The notes beneath the pieces are model-generated. The model did not search any database and had not been told where the DNA came from. It saw only the letters and a program-made list of their open reading frames with translations. From contig NZ_JAKVIR010000005.1 in the NCBI RefSeq assembly GCF_022601975.1, positions 142,318 through 206,317 of the forward strand: a stretch of 64,000 nt of DNA. The letters run 5' to 3'. Positions 43,129-49,441 of the stretch are shown one piece after another. Numbering within the stretch: position 1 is the first letter of the stretch; each line of letters begins with the position of its first letter. This DNA comes from Pontibacter sp. E15-1. GTDB taxonomy: Bacteria; Bacteroidota; Bacteroidia; Cytophagales; Hymenobacteraceae. A program made the translations under genes and the position numbers.

Positions 43129-44463
43129 CTATACCACTGCCTTCTCCGAAATCGTATCCTCAACCGGGGTATTCTCCTGCTTCTGGCCCACGATAAACCT
43201 GTTGCCGGTATCGTAAGTAAAGTAGCTCCAGAGCCAGTTCATCGTCACGACCAGCTTGTTGCGGAACCCTATCACCGACACCAGGTGGATAAACATCCAG
43301 ATTAGCCAGGCCATAAACCCCTGCGTTTTGATCTCCTTTTTTCCGAGCTTCAGGTCGGCCACCGCGCGGTTGCGGCCCACTGTGGCCATCGAGCCCTTGT
43401 CGTTATAGGTAAAAGGCTCCAGGGGCGTGCCCGCCAGCAGGTGTCCGATGTTCCTGCCCAGCAGGCGGCCCTGCTGTATCGCTGCCTGCGCCAGCATGGG
43501 GTGCCCCTGCGGGTTCTCCTCCGTCACCATGGCTGCGAGGTCGCCGATGGCGAACACGTTTTCATACCCAGACACGCGGTTGTATCGGTCTACCAGCAGG
43601 CGACTCCCGGGCAAAATGCTCTCTGGCCGGATGCCCCGCACGGGAGCCCCGGCTACGCCCGCCGCCCAGATCAGGGTGCGTGTCACGAGGGTCTCGCCTG
43701 TGTCTAACGACACGGTATAGCCGTCGTAGGATTTCACGCGGCGATTCAGCCATACCTTCACGCCAAAATCCTCCAGAAAACGCAAGGCTTCCCGCGAGGC
43801 CTCTCCCGACATCCCCTTCAGCAGATGGGGGCCGCTTTGGATCAGGTGAATGTCCATGTCCCGGAAGTTGAGCTCTTTGTAGTCGTTCGGGAAGACGTGC
43901 TTCCGCAGCTCGCTCAGCGCCCCCGCCAGTTCCACTCCCGTCGGCCCGCCGCCCACGATCACGTAATCCATCAGGCTGTTTTTCTGCTCCTCATCGGCTA
44001 CCTGCAATGCCTTCTCAAAGTTTTGCAGCATGGTGTTCCGCAAGATCAGGGCATCGTCCAGGCTCTTCATCGAGATGGCCTTCTCCTCCATCACCTTGTC
44101 GCCGAAAAAGTTTGACGTCGCGCCGGTGGCCAGCACCAGGTAATCATACTCGATCAGGCCAATCGTTGTCTCCACCATGCGGTTGCCTGTGTCGATGGAT
44201 TCTACCTCGGCCAGCCTGAAATAGAAATTCTCCTGGCCTTTGTATATTTTCCGGAAAGGGTGTATGATGGAGTCGGCCTCGACGCCCGCGGTAGCCACCT
44301 GGTAGAGCAGCGGCTGAAAGGTATGGTAGTTCTCTCGGTCTACGAGCACCACTTGCACTTCGGTGTGGCGCAGGGCTTTCGCCAGCTCGATGCCGCCAAA
44401 CCCGCCCCCGATAATGAGCACACGCGGCTTGCCGGTATGGGCTATTCTGGTTTCTTGTGTCAT
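43129..44463 (-). CDS. ndh: Type II NADH:quinone oxidoreductase (NDH-2)
   Basis: A single-subunit respiratory enzyme passing electrons from NADH to quinone at the inner face of the cytoplasmic membrane, without pumping protons. 444 residues from the ATG at 44461-44463. VLIIGGGFGGIELAKAL binds FAD and VIVGGGPTGVELAGAL binds NADH; YHTFQPLLYQVATAG near residue 47 and AQAAIQQGRLLGRNI near the C-terminus are typical of the family. An amphipathic, Trp-rich C-terminal segment (GFMAWLIWMFIHLVSVIGFRN) anchors it to the membrane. Its presence fits an aerobic lifestyle. Confidence 0.92.
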   Translation of the reverse strand: MTQETRIAHTGKPRVLIIGGGFGGIELAKALRHTEVQVVLVDRENYHTFQPLLYQVATAGVEADSIIHPFRKIYKGQENFYFRLAEVESIDTGNRMVETTIGLIEYDYLVLATGATSNFFGDKVMEEKAISMKSLDDALILRNTMLQNFEKALQVADEEQKNSLMDYVIVGGGPTGVELAGALSELRKHVFPNDYKELNFRDMDIHLIQSGPHLLKGMSGEASREALRFLEDFGVKVWLNRRVKSYDGYTVSLDTGETLVTRTLIWAAGVAGAPVRGIRPESILPGSRLLVDRYNRVSGYENVFAIGDLAAMVTEENPQGHPMLAQAAIQQGRLLGRNIGHLLAGTPLEPFTYNDKGSMATVGRNRAVADLKLGKKEIKTQGFMAWLIWMFIHLVSVIGFRNKLVVTMNWLWSYFTYDTGNRFIVGQKQENTPVEDTISEKAVV

Positions 44464-44676
44464 GTAATCTACTCGTAAATCAGGGGAGGTTAACATTGGG
44501 TATGAGGGTATGCGCAAACCGGTAACAGCCAGGAGCAGTTATACCCCGGTGCGCCCAGTATACTACGGAAGGCGCAGGCGCGTGTTCTGTCTGTCAGCAG
44601 CGATGACCGCAAAGTAGATGCGTCTAAGATACGAGGTTAGCCGCGGGGCCATATCACGCATCAGCCTGTGCGGGCG

Positions 44677-45012
44677 CTATTCCCGCGTGTCGAGGTTCTT
44701 GCCCAAGTCCCGTACCTGACTCATGAAAGTTTCGATTTTATCGTCGGCATACGTGCCGTAGGCGTCTGAGAGAGTGCCCTTTGCGCCAGTGGCGGTCTCC
44801 AGCACATAGAGGATTGCCATGTCGTCGGGGTTGCTTTCGCCCTCGAAGCGGTAGAAGTTCACGATCTGCACTTGGCCCGGCTCGAATTCCTGCGTCCCGT
44901 CCGTCGTGCTCAGGCGCCCGTTTTCGGTCACTCTAAAGTCCTGAACGTAGCCTCGCTCCCGCACCTGGGCGAGCACCGTGATTAAAGGGGTTAAATCGTT
45001 TGTGTCCTGCAT
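44677..45012 (-). CDS. Small acidic conserved hypothetical protein
   Basis: A 111-residue protein with the pattern RERGYVQDFRV, then VQIVNFYRFEGESNPDDMAILYVLET, then GTLSDAYGTYADD. This matches a short Bacteroidota family often mislabelled in databases as phosphoribosylpyrophosphate synthetase; it has no PRPP-synthetase motifs, so I give no function. Its first eight codons are duplicated at 47286-47308 as part of the 419-bp direct repeat, but the copy there is not followed by the rest of the gene. Confidence 0.75.
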   Translation of the reverse strand: MQDTNDLTPLITVLAQVRERGYVQDFRVTENGRLSTTDGTQEFEPGQVQIVNFYRFEGESNPDDMAILYVLETATGAKGTLSDAYGTYADDKIETFMSQVRDLGKNLDTRE

Positions 45013-45408
45013 TGCGCTATCGGTATGAAGTGGTATAAACTACTCCCTATACGCAAAAGCAGGACAAGGATACGCACCGCACAGCAGCAAATGGCACCAG
45101 AATCTGCGCCTTATGGCCGCTCTAGCTGCCCGACGATGCGCTCGCAGAGCTCATGGGTCAACAGCGCGTCAGTAGCCGAAACTTGAGGGGTTTGCCCTGT
45201 CTTCACAGTCTGGATGAAATCCTCTACGATCTGCTCGAAGCCGCGTTTGTGCAGCATGGGCTCCCAATCGCTGCTGCCGGGCCGCGTCTCATCTCCCCCC
45301 TTCCGGATCACCAGGTCAGAAACCTGCAAGGCCATGCGTTTCTCGCCCGCGCTCATCACCTCCACCCGTTCCTCCGACGCGCCGCTGTCGCGGTTCATGA
45401 TGCCGATG
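44990..45408 (+). repeat. 419-bp direct repeat, left copy
   Basis: From gttaaatcgtttgtg to the ccgatg at 45403-45408, this matches 47286-47704 with ten substitutions and no gaps (about 97.6% by hand). It covers the first eight codons of the small acidic gene, the intergenic space, and the last 99 codons of the oxidoreductase gene. It encloses the AT-rich insert together with its partner. Confidence 0.92.
45111..45408 (-). pseudogene. Truncated copy of the Gfo/Idh/MocA oxidoreductase C-terminus
   Basis: Encodes the last 99 residues of the oxidoreductase found whole at 47407-48318, ending in the same IVGQLERP. The upstream part is lost at 45408, where the sequence changes to unrelated AT-rich DNA. 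It has diverged slightly (for example SSDWEPML here, TSDWEPML in the full gene). It is a by-product of the 419-bp duplication and is unlikely to be expressed. Confidence 0.85.
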
Positions 45409-47285
45409 TAATGTTGGCACTACTTCTAAAAAGCTGATAAGTTCAGATAGGATGTTACTTTTTAAGTGATTTTCTAGGGTGTAATTCAGGTCTTTCACCA
45501 TGATTTAATGTTTTTAGCGAGTAAAGGTAAGTTACCTATAGAAGTATATATTCCTTTTTTAGTAATTAATATCTAATCAAATTGATGGATCTTATTACAT
45601 ACTTAACTCAATATTATGAAGAAAATTTATTACATGTTAATCGGCTTCCTACTGTTAGGTGGAGCATCAGCTTGTCAAGAAGAAGAGGTAATGGCACCGG
45701 GTTCTGCAGCTCCCTTGGCTACGTCAAGGACTTTATATGCCATTCCCTCATACTCCTTAGACTGGGAAAATATTGATTATATGCCATGGCCTAACAATGA
45801 TGCTCCTAGAGTACCATGGGAGGTCACCACCAGTTACATTCCGTTTGATATACGCTTTGATTATAAAAAAGAAGACGGATGGGAATTACTTTACAGTACA
45901 TTCAGCTCTAATAGAATCGAGAACGATCTATACTTTATACTATACAATAAGTATAGAGGAGTGATGCGCCTTTATTACTTATCAGATCCTGGTTTGCAAG
46001 AGAGTAGCTATATGGTGAGTACATTGAGAAAAGAAGGGCCTGCAGCAGGAAATTCTCCTTTACTCAACTTCTCTGACCAAGAAGTTGTAGACTTCAATGT
46101 TAAATCACCTTTTGCATCTAGAACAGAAGAAGCACAATTTAGCGGCAGAGCGTGGTATGCTTTTGAATATGAAGTGCCTTATGACCCAAGCATTGCATCT
46201 GGTAACTACAGTAATTTTTCAATGAATTGGCGCATAAATTCAGTTAACATTTCAAAATTAGAAATTAATGGTCGTGGAGCTCTTGAAGGTAAGGTGCCTT
46301 CAGTGTCATCGCCAGGTATTAACTTGAGTTTAAGCTCCAATTTCACAAATAAATCTAATAGCGGTGTACAGATTACAGGTCCTACAGTAGTTGAAAATGG
46401 TGGATCGGGAGGAGGCTCAGGATCATGGTTTACTGACGCAATCAAAGCGGGATTGTCTAAAGCCCTAACAAATGGTGTATCAGGAATTGCAACAAATATT
46501 CTGAGTGGTATCTTCACGAAGAAGAAGGATAATACGGCAAATATAGCAACTATGAAACTTAAAGCCACTATGACTTACACAGGGACAGTGCAGTCAAGTT
46601 CGGGTTTAGATAATTTTGCATTGCCACTCCCTGGGTATGGCGATTCGAGGTATCAGAACACTTATAATAAAATTCCTGGTATATTTTACATATCAGGAAG
46701 ACCTACTGTACAGCAAAAGATTTTACATTATGCTAAAAAGACCGAGTGGGGCGGTGGTTATGATTTAAATGGAAGTTATTATACGAATACATATAGTAAT
46801 CCTTCTAATTTTCAACTCATTTACAATCCTGAAATTCTTAAAATTGCCTCCATACAAAATGTTAGATATGAAATGATTTTGCTAAATTCTGGAGAGATAA
46901 CCTCTGGGCAGATAGAAACGATCGGAGACAAAATGTACGCTGTTGGATTGATAGCAGGATATAAATCAGATCAGGAACCTTCTACAGAGGGATTTGTTGG
47001 CCTGCGAGTGTCTTTTAAAGTAGTGCCTAATGACGGCTCTCCAGCTGTTTTATTAGTTAAGACATTTAAATGTAATATCAATACTACGACAGAAATTATA
47101 CCATATCAATAAAATCGGTATAGAACACGTGATCTTTTGAACAACAGCCGCTCAACTCCAGTGCGGCTGTTGTGGTTATTGCATATACGGTTGTATATCA
47201 TAACAGAGTGCCCTTCCACATTTACTTAATACTCGAGAGTGCAGCCACCTCCTTATGTACCTAGTAAAGTACCCTAGCCAAGCGC
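45409..47285 (+). other. AT-rich inserted segment between 419-bp direct repeats
   Basis: 1.88 kb, visibly much richer in A and T than the flanks. It contains one intact gene (lipoprotein, 45616-47112), plus on the minus strand the start of another frame at 45501 (MVKDLNYTLENHLKSNILSE), which is cut off at the repeat junction after about 30 codons. No transposase, integrase or short inverted ends are visible. The shape (cargo between long, slightly diverged direct repeats) resembles a single-crossover integration of foreign DNA that carried a homologous arm. Confidence 0.7.
45616..47112 (+). CDS. Lipoprotein of unknown function with Gly-rich linker and hydrophobic segment
   Basis: 498 residues. 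The lipoprotein signal peptide ends GGASAC with Cys20, followed by acidic EEE, which in Bacteroidota can signal outer-surface display. Residues about 40-250 look like a beta-rich, Tyr-rich domain (GWELLYSTFSSN, YFILYNKYRGVMRLYYL). A flexible GGSGGGSGS linker near residue 262 leads into an amphipathic, hydrophobic stretch (WFTDAIKAGLSKALTNGVSG then IATNILSGIF) that could insert in or cross a membrane. A second beta-rich domain follows to the end. I recognise no family. The gene is AT-rich, probably transferred, and is the only intact gene between the long direct repeats. Confidence 0.75.
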   Translation: MKKIYYMLIGFLLLGGASACQEEEVMAPGSAAPLATSRTLYAIPSYSLDWENIDYMPWPNNDAPRVPWEVTTSYIPFDIRFDYKKEDGWELLYSTFSSNRIENDLYFILYNKYRGVMRLYYLSDPGLQESSYMVSTLRKEGPAAGNSPLLNFSDQEVVDFNVKSPFASRTEEAQFSGRAWYAFEYEVPYDPSIASGNYSNFSMNWRINSVNISKLEINGRGALEGKVPSVSSPGINLSLSSNFTNKSNSGVQITGPTVVENGGSGGGSGSWFTDAIKAGLSKALTNGVSGIATNILSGIFTKKKDNTANIATMKLKATMTYTGTVQSSSGLDNFALPLPGYGDSRYQNTYNKIPGIFYISGRPTVQQKILHYAKKTEWGGGYDLNGSYYTNTYSNPSNFQLIYNPEILKIASIQNVRYEMILLNSGEITSGQIETIGDKMYAVGLIAGYKSDQEPSTEGFVGLRVSFKVVPNDGSPAVLLVKTFKCNINTTTEIIPYQ

Positions 47286-47704
47286 GTTAAATCGTTTGTG
47301 TCCTGCATTGCGCTATCGGTATGAAGTGGTATAAACTACTCCCTATACGCAAAAGCAGGACAAGGATACGCACCGCACAGCGGCAAATGGCACCAGTATC
47401 TGCGCCTTATGGCCGCTCTAGCTGCCCGACGATGCGCTCGCAGAGCTCATGGGTCAACAGCGCGTCAGCAGCCGAAACGTGAGGGGTTTGCCCTGTCTTC
47501 ACAGCCTGGATGAAATCCTCTACGATCTGCTCGAAGCCGCGTTTGTGCAGCATCGGCTCCCAATCGCTGGTGCCGGGCCGCGTCTCATCTCCCCCCTTCC
47601 GGATCACCAGGTCAGAAACCTGCAAGGCCATGCGTTTCTCGCCTGCGCTCATCACCTCCACCCGTTCCTCCGACGCGCCGCTGTCACGGTTCATAATGCC
47701 GATG
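47286..47704 (+). repeat. 419-bp direct repeat, right copy
   Basis: Partner of 44990-45408, same orientation, ten substitutions. Here it leads into the intact oxidoreductase gene, so this copy holds that gene's true C-terminus. Confidence 0.92.
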
Positions 47705-48318
47705 GCGGTGGCCCCATTGCTGGCTGTCATTTGCACCGTGACGTGATAAAGCAGCCCATCCTCTACTTTCCCGCGCACGAGAAGCTCCGCTACGGGGTAT
47801 GGGAAAAGGTAGCGCAGCGTGTCCGCCACATGGATAAAATCGTCGAAGACAAAGGTGCGGATCGGGGCGGGTTGCGCCACTCTGTTTTTCTGCATCAGCA
47901 CCATATTGGGCGCTTCCAGGCTCCTGAGTTGCTGGTACGCAGGGGCATACCGCCGGTTAAATCCCGCCATCAGCACCAGGCCCTGCGTTTCGGCAAGGGT
48001 AACCAGCTGCTTCGTGGAGGCGAGGTCGTAGGTGATAGGCTTGTCGACGTACACGTGTATGCCGCGGCGCAGCAGTTGCTCCACCAGTTCGGCGTGCGCC
48101 TCGGTGGCCCCATGCACAAAGGCCCCCTTTATACCGCTTTCCAGCAGCGACGCCAGGCTTGGATGCAGGTGCAGGAACCGGTACTGAGCCCCAATGCGGG
48201 AGAGCTTTTCCGGGTTTCGGGTATGGAGGTGCACTTCCACATCCGCGCGACTGCTCACCACGGGCAGGTATGCTTTGCCGGCAATGTCGCCAAGGCCAAT
48301 GATTCCTATTTTCAGCAT
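47407..48318 (-). CDS. Gfo/Idh/MocA-family oxidoreductase
   Basis: A 303-residue cytoplasmic NAD(P)-dependent oxidoreductase, probably acting on a sugar or inositol-like compound. GIIGLGDIAGKAYLPV is the Rossmann loop, and DKPITYD near residue 95 is the family EKP-type lysine site (here D-K-P). GFNRRYAP follows at about residue 120. It lacks the usual long C-terminal substrate domain features, so it may belong to a shorter MviM-like branch. The last 99 codons are duplicated at 45111-45408. Its start is the ATG at 48316-48318. Confidence 0.83.
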   Translation of the reverse strand: MLKIGIIGLGDIAGKAYLPVVSSRADVEVHLHTRNPEKLSRIGAQYRFLHLHPSLASLLESGIKGAFVHGATEAHAELVEQLLRRGIHVYVDKPITYDLASTKQLVTLAETQGLVLMAGFNRRYAPAYQQLRSLEAPNMVLMQKNRVAQPAPIRTFVFDDFIHVADTLRYLFPYPVAELLVRGKVEDGLLYHVTVQMTASNGATAIGIMNRDSGASEERVEVMSAGEKRMALQVSDLVIRKGGDETRPGTSDWEPMLHKRGFEQIVEDFIQAVKTGQTPHVSAADALLTHELCERIVGQLERP

Positions 48319-48955
48319 GTTTCTATGTTTGGGCTTTCGTGCAATCCCCTGCTATACCCGCGTCTGCGCGCTTGGGTTGGGTTACAGCGAATGTAACAAG
48401 GCTGTAGCTGAATAGCCATACCTGCCCTGATTATTTCAGTGGGTGGTCCGTCCAAATCCTGCACGGAAGGTGCGATGAAGCTGGCCCATACCCAGCCGTG
48501 CTCCTCAAGGCAACTTAGGAAGAGACAGCGCAATCAGGCGTATACCAAATAGCGATGTTGCAGGGGGGCTGGTATAAAACCGCTTATTTTTTCATCAACC
48601 AGGACTTTCGCATCTAATCGAAACACGGAGCGAACGCAATCTGCAGCCTGCCGTTGTTGTGTGTGCTCACCAACAACTTGTTTGTCAAAAGACGCAACAA
48701 GGGCAGCTTTGCGAAAGCCTTGTCAATATTATTTATACCTGCTGTTACGGAATGCCCTCATTTGTCTTTCTTTGAAGGGGGCTTTTTAAACCGTGCTGCT
48801 CTATTGCGTAACATCGGCTATACATGCACTTATGTTAGATCGATCTATTACAAAAAGAATTTTCGAAAAAAGTGCGGGGCTTCGGTCCAAATTTGCTGAT
48901 GCTGTCCGTCATTAGGGTATAAAACAGTTATCTTAATTTATCTAACGACATCAAA
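48319..48955 (+). other. Intergenic with one dispersed repeat
   Basis: 637 bp between divergent genes. Copy 2 of the dispersed hairpin repeat lies at 48600-48722. The 48312-48533 minus-strand frame and the 48654-48899 plus-strand frame are not supported as genes (the second runs through the repeat). The promoter of the DinB gene probably lies in the AT-rich stretch at 48840-48950. Confidence 0.6.
48600..48722 (+). repeat. Dispersed hairpin repeat, copy 2
   Basis: A 123-bp copy carrying a small insertion (the aatctgcagc part) and a weakened outer stem: gcgaaagccttg instead of gcgaaagtcctg. The central accaacaacttgtttgt hairpin also has one change. Same orientation as the other two copies. This looks like the most decayed copy. 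Confidence 0.85.
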
Positions 48956-49441
48956 ATGGCCAATGCTATCCATCAATCCGAACTGATCCTGAACATGAAC
49001 AGCCGCTTGTTTCTCAACTCCCTGGAGGGTGTTACAGAAGAGCAGGCAACCGAACGCATCAGCGACCACAACAACCCCCTGATATGGTTGGCGACGCATA
49101 CCGTTTGGGCGCGCTACAACATGAGTATGCTGTTGGGCAAACCGGCTGAACACAACCCTTATGATGGCAAGTTCGATAACTTCAGGCCATACGATGCCGC
49201 AGAGGATTACCCCAGCCTTGCGGAGGTAAATGCTGAGTGGCAGAAAGCAACCGCTCTGCTGGCCGAGGCCCTGCAAAGCGCAAGCGAAGCGCACCTTGCC
49301 GCCGATTGCCCGATAAAGAGCCCGATCGGCGACTTTACCAACGCCGGCACGTTCGCCTTCCTGGTACAGCACGAAAGCTATGACATCGGCCAGATGGCTT
49401 TCCTGAAGAAGTACCTCACCAAAGAGGCCATGAAATACTAA
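48956..49441 (+). CDS. DinB-family protein
   Basis: A 161-residue four-helix-bundle protein. Metal-type histidines are placed as expected for the DinB superfamily: one in the second helix (WLATHTVWARYNM, residue about 47) and one near the C-terminus (FLVQHESYDIGQM, residue about 142). Some members are bacillithiol- or mycothiol-dependent S-transferases, but many have no known reaction. It starts a rightward set of four genes that ends in an ECF sigma factor. It precedes the next gene by 29 bp. Confidence 0.85.
   Translation: MANAIHQSELILNMNSRLFLNSLEGVTEEQATERISDHNNPLIWLATHTVWARYNMSMLLGKPAEHNPYDGKFDNFRPYDAAEDYPSLAEVNAEWQKATALLAEALQSASEAHLAADCPIKSPIGDFTNAGTFAFLVQHESYDIGQMAFLKKYLTKEAMKY

What the first reader, a model, noticed from the sequence alone, without database searches (positions are those of the whole stretch)
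44990..47704. Foreign lipoprotein gene between two 419-bp direct repeats
A 1.88-kb AT-rich segment with one intact gene sits between two direct repeats of 419 bp that differ at only ten positions by my reading. One copy contains the last 99 codons of an oxidoreductase gene, the other is that gene's own end, so the insert brought or duplicated a homologous arm. No transposase or short target duplication is seen. This is the pattern expected from single-crossover capture of DNA from a related strain, and the cargo could be a surface toxin, bacteriocin or immunity-type protein. The duplication and the AT-richness are visible; the mechanism and role are inferred.
Basis: partly seen in the sequence, partly recalled or inferred. 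Interest (0 to 1): 0.8.

Follow-up and report, generated by a model that had tools for sequence, protein, structure and literature searches.

The report
Lipoprotein gene captured between homologous arms
A Pontibacter bacterium has gained a single foreign lipoprotein gene by an insertion that also doubled the end of a neighbouring gene, and relatives of this gene sit at other places with a similar scar, so it may be a travelling gene that moves without any enzyme of its own.

Summary
Direct repeats 44990-45408 and 47286-47704 (409/419 identical) enclose an 1877-bp insert (GC 0.38, flanks 0.55) with one 498-aa lipoprotein gene. Three of three Pontibacter genomes with the same gene order have one copy and no insert, so this is an insertion.

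The cargo belongs to an unnamed Bacteroidota family (no match of weight in Pfam, NCBIfam, PHROGs or PDB). Five Pontibacter genomes carry it, in five gene contexts. Empty-site comparison shows a similar scar at two more loci: a doubled susD end in P. mucosus (86-111 bp) and a doubled TonB-receptor end in Pedobacter (36 bp). In a fourth genome it replaces the inside of a susC gene. In 400 kb of P. mucosus against a close relative, only the cargo locus of 24 length-changing junctions has an overlap of 20 bp or more. The P. mucosus arm looks chimeric, part foreign allele, part native.

Best reading: DNA from a related strain, fixed by a crossover in a homologous arm and an illegitimate joint at the other end, as in published 'insertion with long target duplication' and duplication-type single crossovers. 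The scar is not a family rule: 57 of 64 loci examined have no bracketing repeats. Function is unknown; toxin or immunity is unsupported.

The parts
44990..45408 (.). left direct repeat (419 bp): first 23 bp of the 111-aa gene, intergenic DNA, last 99 codons of the oxidoreductase, cut off at 45408
   Evidence: 409/419 identity to the right copy; outer flank collinear with three congeners
45111..45398 (-). remnant ORF of the oxidoreductase 3' end (95 aa from an internal ATG)
45409..47285 (.). AT-rich insert, 1877 bp, absent from three syntenic congeners
45616..47112 (+). cargo: 498-aa lipoprotein of an unnamed Bacteroidota family (lipobox Cys20 invariant in 23 of 23 aligned members)
47141..47173 (+). 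stem-loop 28 bp after the cargo's stop codon; a similar one follows the cargo in G019; read by eye, not called by the terminator scan
   Evidence: absent from the list
47286..47704 (.). right direct repeat (419 bp), continues into the complete oxidoreductase gene
47407..48318 (-). complete oxidoreductase gene, Gfo/Idh/MocA type, 303 aa
44677..45012 (-). 111-aa gene without a Pfam match, conserved in the three congeners; its start codon lies in the left repeat
43129..44517 (-). NDH-2 type NADH dehydrogenase, native flank used to recognise the empty site

Best explanation
The locus is a one-gene gain from a related strain. DNA carrying the lipoprotein gene next to a stretch homologous to the 3' end of the oxidoreductase entered the cell; a crossover in that stretch fixed one side, and an illegitimate joint (inside the incoming molecule, which then integrates as a circle by one crossover, or directly with the chromosome) fixed the other. 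The result is the cargo between two copies of the homologous arm: the oxidoreductase stays whole at the right, a truncated copy is left at the left. No transposase is involved. The same family has landed by a similar event at other loci, with duplications of 36 and 86-111 bp in two cases and a deletion type in one. Shown: insertion, duplication, and repeated independent placement of the family. Inferred: the homologous crossover, the strain origin of the arm, and that the 419-bp repeats now allow RecA-dependent loss of the cargo. The cargo is most likely an outer-surface lipoprotein useful only under some conditions, hence its patchy distribution; what it binds or blocks is not known.
For: Empty site with one copy in G025, G215, G210. 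The family at two other sites with a similar scar: in G013 (P. mucosus) against G208 the flanking alignments overlap by 86 bp on the empty genome at the susD end; in Pedobacter miscanthi L082 the flanking alignments overlap at a TonB-receptor end, typically by about 36 bp, in 8 of 9 relatives (not in L228; L229 ends near this point, so its emptiness is not shown). Control: of 24 junctions with a length difference of at least 300 bp in 400 kb of G013 against G208, only the cargo locus has an overlap of 20 bp or more (92 bp in that run); two others overlap by 17 and 12 bp. The right arm in G013 looks chimeric: first 84 bp nearest the G021 susD (63/84; own susD 50/80; G208 48/82), last 56 bp nearest G208 (54/56; own susD 50/56); G022 matches it at 83% over 137 bp. 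In G019 the cargo stands in place of about 2.35 kb of susC relative to G025, the deletion outcome predicted for homology-facilitated illegitimate recombination. In E. coli, most recombinants examined (56 of 60 by PCR) had a duplication of the homologous locus, 109-950 bp in 14 sequenced, explained by single crossover of a circular molecule (PMC3240628, passages). In the window the copy attached to the intact gene carries at least as many derived bases as the truncated one.
Against: No strain of the same species was at hand, so donor and recipient alleles in the window cannot be told apart; polarity rests on ten sites and three outgroups at about 72-80% nucleotide identity. The P. mucosus chimera rests on 140 bp with a break point that I set after viewing the alignment, and a later swap of its SusCD operon could explain it. 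A circle with one crossover would make the end of the left P. mucosus copy donor-like, but it is nearer G208 (52/59) than G021 (45/59). A donor that already had the cargo beside this gene has not been seen. The scar is not a rule: 7 of 64 loci have a bracketing pair at E<=1e-10, and of these L090 and L091 look like dispersed repeats, L185 lies beside a second cargo copy, and L155 is a 78% match 1.7 kb away.
Confidence: 0.55

Rival explanations
1. In-situ 'insertion with long target duplication': the insertion process itself (staggered break or template switch during replication) copied 36-419 bp of target; the two copies were identical at first and have diverged since.
For: In the window and in Pedobacter L082 the two copies are closer to each other (97.6%, 97%) than to the relatives compared; long and variable target duplication was described for restriction-modification genes in Helicobacter pylori (Nobusato et al. 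2000, seen only as cited in PMC1643837 and PMC3031569, passages).
Against: The two copies in P. mucosus look like different susD alleles. In the window derived bases are not concentrated in the useless copy.
Confidence: 0.27
2. A transposon or integrative element that has lost, or borrows, its transposase moved the gene; the repeats are then secondary.
For: Some family members lie near transposase genes: IS66 near L042, an integrase-core remnant near L090, a Tn3 family and another transposase on the Spirosoma plasmid.
Against: No transposase or integrase ORF in the insert, no inverted repeats joining the two insert ends, no common ends visible between the three clean inserts, whose left edges lie 207, 1151 and 150 bp before the gene, and no short fixed target duplication.
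Confidence: 0.1
3. Tandem duplication of the locus followed by replacement or decay of the DNA between, with the lipoprotein gene resident all along.
For: Repeats in direct order with native outer flanks fit a tandem-duplication joint.
Against: Three syntenic congeners lack the gene; GC of the insert is 0.38 against 0.55.
Confidence: 0.05
4. Assembly artefact of a draft genome.
For: The genome is a draft of 55 contigs.
Against: The window lies inside a 237-kb contig, the copies differ at ten sites and their outer flanks are different native DNA; a similar anatomy occurs in other genomes.
Confidence: 0.03

Closest known systems
Insertion with long target duplication (Nobusato, Uchiyama, Ohashi and Kobayashi, Gene 2000; known here only through passages of PMC1643837 and PMC3031569)
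   Same: Gene gained relative to an empty site, bracketed by long and variable direct repeats of target sequence.
   Different: There frequently a restriction-modification gene in Helicobacter pylori; here a single lipoprotein gene in Bacteroidota. The arms in P. mucosus look like different alleles.
Single crossover or homology-facilitated illegitimate recombination of incoming DNA (PMC3240628, E. coli conjugation, passages)
   Same: Homology on one side, illegitimate joint on the other; most recombinants had a duplication of 109-950 bp, a deletion being predicted for the illegitimate type.
   Different: A laboratory event; the natural route of entry and the donor are unknown here, and the 36-bp and 86-111-bp cases lie below or at the edge of that range.
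Integrative elements that restore the 3' end of their target gene (recalled)
   Same: Intact target gene plus a truncated copy of its 3' end on the other side of the insert.
   Different: No integrase, a different target gene each time, arms of 36-419 bp, break points at arbitrary positions.

Membership tests
Insertion with long target duplication | insert present against an empty site in a related genome | tested here: met
   three congeners with one copy and no insert
Insertion with long target duplication | long, variable direct repeats of target sequence bracket the insert | tested here: met
   419 bp here, 86-111 bp in G013, about 36 bp in L082
Insertion with long target duplication | usual, not defining: cargo is a restriction-modification gene complex | tested here: not met
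   cargo has no match of weight in Pfam, NCBIfam or PADLOC
Single-crossover / homology-facilitated capture of incoming DNA | arm of different strain origin, with a crossover point inside it | tested here: inconclusive
   arm in P. mucosus looks chimeric over 140 bp, break point set after viewing; in the window ten differences of mixed polarity
Single-crossover / homology-facilitated capture of incoming DNA | duplication size in the range seen by experiment (109-950 bp) | tested here: met
   419 bp in the window; L082 at about 36 bp falls outside; range from PMC3240628
Single-crossover / homology-facilitated capture of incoming DNA | cell takes up DNA (competence or conjugation) | not tested
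Transposon or insertion sequence | transposase gene in the element | tested here: not met
   one long ORF in 45409-47285, three short ones without a Pfam match
Transposon or insertion sequence | terminal inverted repeats | tested here: not met
   no inverted pair of at least 12 nt joins the two ends
Integrase-driven 3'-end element | integrase gene and fixed attachment site | tested here: not met
   no integrase ORF; different target genes and lengths
Known toxin, bacteriocin or immunity family | sequence or fold match to such a family | tested here: inconclusive
   no match of weight in Pfam, NCBIfam, PHROGs or PDB sequences; PADLOC one member at 0.0052; Foldseek on PDB none at E<=0.001; VIA best Z 4.3

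The most novel reading that the evidence does not exclude
This lipoprotein family is a nomadic single gene of Bacteroidota: it spreads between strains and species as a bare gene with its own upstream region and stem-loop, with no element around it, by repeated homologous-arm capture, and lands preferentially at the ends of, or inside, TonB-receptor and SusCD genes. The arm duplication leaves it excisable by RecA, so carriers can lose it again, and selection on the outer surface, for instance against phages or rivals that use those receptors, keeps bringing it back.
Probability: 0.25. Interest if true: 0.65.

Novelty: new variant of a known kind. Interest (0 to 1): 0.45.

Why it matters
Long target duplications around a gained gene were described as frequently associated with restriction-modification genes. 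A similar scar around one single-gene, uncharacterised lipoprotein family at three independent sites suggests that it can be a general sign of arm-assisted capture, and gives a way to find travelling genes that carry no transposase. It also points to an unnamed lipoprotein family, found in Pontibacter, Pedobacter, Niastella, Longitalea, Mucilaginibacter and Spirosoma records, whose function is open.

Tried and rejected
Cargo function: Pfam (window protein, then all 23 members), NCBIfam (5 members), PHROGs and PADLOC (23 members), PDB sequences (profile of 5), an AlphaFold2 model (mean pLDDT 75.4, pTM 0.79) with Foldseek on PDB (none at E<=0.001) and on viral models (one at 3.4e-4 with TM 0.11, not meaningful), and VIA-align 2 (best Z 4.3) gave nothing usable. 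The weak CBM64 hit (E 0.043, below its cut-off) is taken as chance. A pore-forming reading of the helical stretch near residues 271-289 was dropped: no fold match, and by eye that stretch is not kept in members such as L078 and L092.

Plasmids and phages: one Spirosoma plasmid at 30.6% identity, no phage match. Rfam: nothing at gathering score in 44000-49000.

Repeats as a family-wide rule: rejected. At E<=1e-10, 7 of 64 cargo loci have a bracketing pair within 2.5 kb against 2 of 235 control genes of the same loci, the two being one and the same pair (one-sided p 0.0004; without the window 6 of 63 against 2 of 229, p 0.0016). Of the seven, three are shown as target duplications by empty sites (window, L074 which is the P. 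mucosus locus, L082). The 'tight' version (5 of 64 against 0 of 235) was set after seeing the data and includes the doubtful L090 and L091; none of the 41 later loci passes it. G019, whose cargo is closest to the window's, has no pair bracketing its cargo in this test. Left out of the 64: partial or truncated matches L084-L087 and L099-L101 (the genome of L084 comes in through L189), and, the partial or truncated hits of G824, G956, G686 and G1173, the near-full hit of G1219 at a contig start, and the second copy in G1111. L039-L041 are the same loci as L076, L074 and L080.

Of the 24 junctions only ten have a shorter side of 50 bp or less; the others are replaced on both sides, so the clean comparison is 1 of 10.

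Landing beside TonB receptors or SusD: 14 of 64 cargo loci against 24 of 326 other genes in the same loci (one-sided p 0.001), with home-made profiles seeded from these loci; suggestive only.
Full report
Observation. Between them lie 1877 bp at GC 0.376 (flanks 0.553) with one long ORF, 45616-47112, 498 aa; three short ORFs there have no Pfam match. The right repeat runs on into a complete Gfo/Idh/MocA-type oxidoreductase gene (47407-48318, minus; Pfam). The left repeat runs on into the 111-aa gene (44677-45012, minus), whose start codon lies in it. The left copy of the oxidoreductase end stops after 99 codons and the right copy of the 111-aa gene after 23 bp. Both break points are inside genes.

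Insertion. The genome is a draft of 5.59 Mb in 55 contigs. The oxidoreductase is found at E<=1e-40 in 5 of 50 genomes of the genus, the window's included. In the three with the same neighbours, G025, G215 and G210, the NADH dehydrogenase, the 111-aa gene and the oxidoreductase are adjacent, with one copy and no cargo; G019 has the oxidoreductase in another context. So the window has the derived, inserted state.

Which arm is native. Against G025, G215 and G210 the ten differences split as follows: the left copy has the better outgroup support at six (two of these by one outgroup only), the right copy at three, one is undecided. At the two sites where all three outgroups agree, one is derived in each copy. 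The copy that belongs to the working gene is thus not the more conserved one. This does not fit a useless copy decaying beside a constant original, but ten sites are few. The closeness of the copies (97.6%) suggests an event younger than the split from those relatives.

The cargo. The protein has a lipobox with a cysteine that is invariant in 23 of 23 aligned members, followed by acidic residues, which by recall marks surface export in this phylum. There is no match of weight in Pfam, NCBIfam, PHROGs or PDB sequences; PADLOC gives one member at E 0.0052. The predicted fold is mostly beta (pLDDT 75.4, pTM 0.79) with no usable structural match. Relatives occur at E<=0.001 in 27 of 204 genomes of the family, some only partial; at E<=1e-20 in 5 of 395 genomes drawn from the class, the window's own included; at E<=1e-40 in 37 of 351 of the family of Pedobacter miscanthi and in 7 of 294 of that of Niastella yeongjuensis; and once on a plasmid of Spirosoma. 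In the window's genus five genomes carry it (50 genomes of the genus are held), each in a different context: here, inside a susC gene (G019), after susD (G013), between a beta-lactamase-fold hydrolase and a DEAD-box helicase gene (G025), and between a lantibiotic dehydratase gene and genes for an HNH protein and an IS66 transposase (G002). The closest, in G019, is 61% identical in protein.

A similar scar elsewhere. In P. mucosus (G013) the cargo sits between a complete susD and a second copy of its 3' end. Against G208, which has no cargo match, the left flank aligns up to the susD stop and the right flank starts 86 bp before that point; 111 bp are shared by the two copies at 78%. In Pedobacter miscanthi (L082) the last 12 codons of a TonB receptor gene (Pfam) stand on both sides, 36 bp at 97%. 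Of nine relatives compared, eight show one such region without the insert and one (L229) ends near this point; the left copy finds its match in eight and not in L228. The inserts are 2853 and 1906 bp, with the cargo as the only long gene. In G019 the cargo stands in place of about 2.35 kb of a susC gene compared with G025, and is followed by about 110-135 bp resembling the start of the S9-peptidase gene further on (73% to its own, 76% to G025).

Controls. In 400 kb of G013 against 400 kb of G208 the collinear chain has 24 junctions with a length difference of at least 300 bp; one, the cargo locus, has an overlap of 20 bp or more, and two others overlap by 17 and 12 bp; ten of the 24 have a shorter side of 50 bp or less. 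Flank-against-flank comparison in 64 loci finds a repeat pair at E<=1e-10 around 7 cargo genes and around 2 of 235 control genes. Cross pairing of flanks from 23 loci gave no hit at that level in 506 pairs. Only three of the seven are shown to be target duplications; two look like dispersed repeats. 57 of the 64 have no such pair, as expected if many residents are old or arrived otherwise, but also as expected if the scar is incidental.

Mechanism. The duplicated arm in P. mucosus does not look like a copy of its own susD end. Its first 84 bp are nearest to G021 (63/84, against 50/80 for the own gene and 48/82 for G208), and its last 56 bp nearest to G208 (54/56); the break point was set after viewing the alignment. 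A crossover inside an imported arm explains this; a later swap of the SusCD operon could too. The end of the left copy is nearer G208 (52/59) than G021 (45/59), which favours a one-sided joint over a circle there. In E. coli, most recombinants of incoming DNA with a homologous end had a duplication of the homologous locus (56 of 60 by PCR; 109-950 bp in 14 sequenced), explained by single crossover of a circular molecule, while the homology-facilitated illegitimate type is predicted to leave a deletion (PMC3240628, passages). The window fits the first outcome, P. mucosus and Pedobacter are shorter versions of it, and G019 fits the second. Long and variable target duplication was earlier described for restriction-modification genes in Helicobacter pylori (PMC1643837 and PMC3031569, passages; the original paper was not read). 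A search for that phrase found 19 papers, of which 15 were listed and none by title or start of abstract concerns Bacteroidota; a second search with Bacteroidetes found three papers, on Helicobacter plasticity zones, a polymerase family and archaeal islands.

Verdict. The finding is real, and its main reading, capture from a related strain, is the best supported. It is not a new kind of element. What is new, as far as these searches go, is that one unnamed single-gene lipoprotein family shows this scar at three independent sites. The suggested toxin or immunity role has no support yet.

Noticed in passing
L198 1105-2194 (G000:C53 51104-52193): Two 424-bp repeats 666 bp apart, 93% identical: internal repeats of one open reading frame, not an insertion.
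   Followed up: yes
L197 5259-6020: A 55-bp direct repeat pair (93%) about 700 bp apart in the window's genome.
   Followed up: no
L042 2556-5636 and 10041-11516: In G002 the cargo relative lies under 1 kb from a lantibiotic dehydratase gene and near an IS66 transposase.
   Followed up: no
L107 8001-9506: A cargo relative on a 268-kb Spirosoma rhododendri plasmid, a few genes from a Tn3 family transposase.
   Followed up: no
L185 (G1111 C72); G889 C8, C9, C11: Two copies of the cargo family about 3 kb apart in G1111, and three at separate places in G889.
   Followed up: no
L091 flanks of the cargo: A 59-bp repeat (81%) on both sides of the cargo relative that by eye is part of a palindrome and looks like a dispersed repeat.
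   Followed up: partly
L099 and L100 (G134, G083): Longer proteins (open frames of about 825-876 aa) in several genomes of the window's family share regions with the cargo, so the family has a larger cousin.
   Followed up: no
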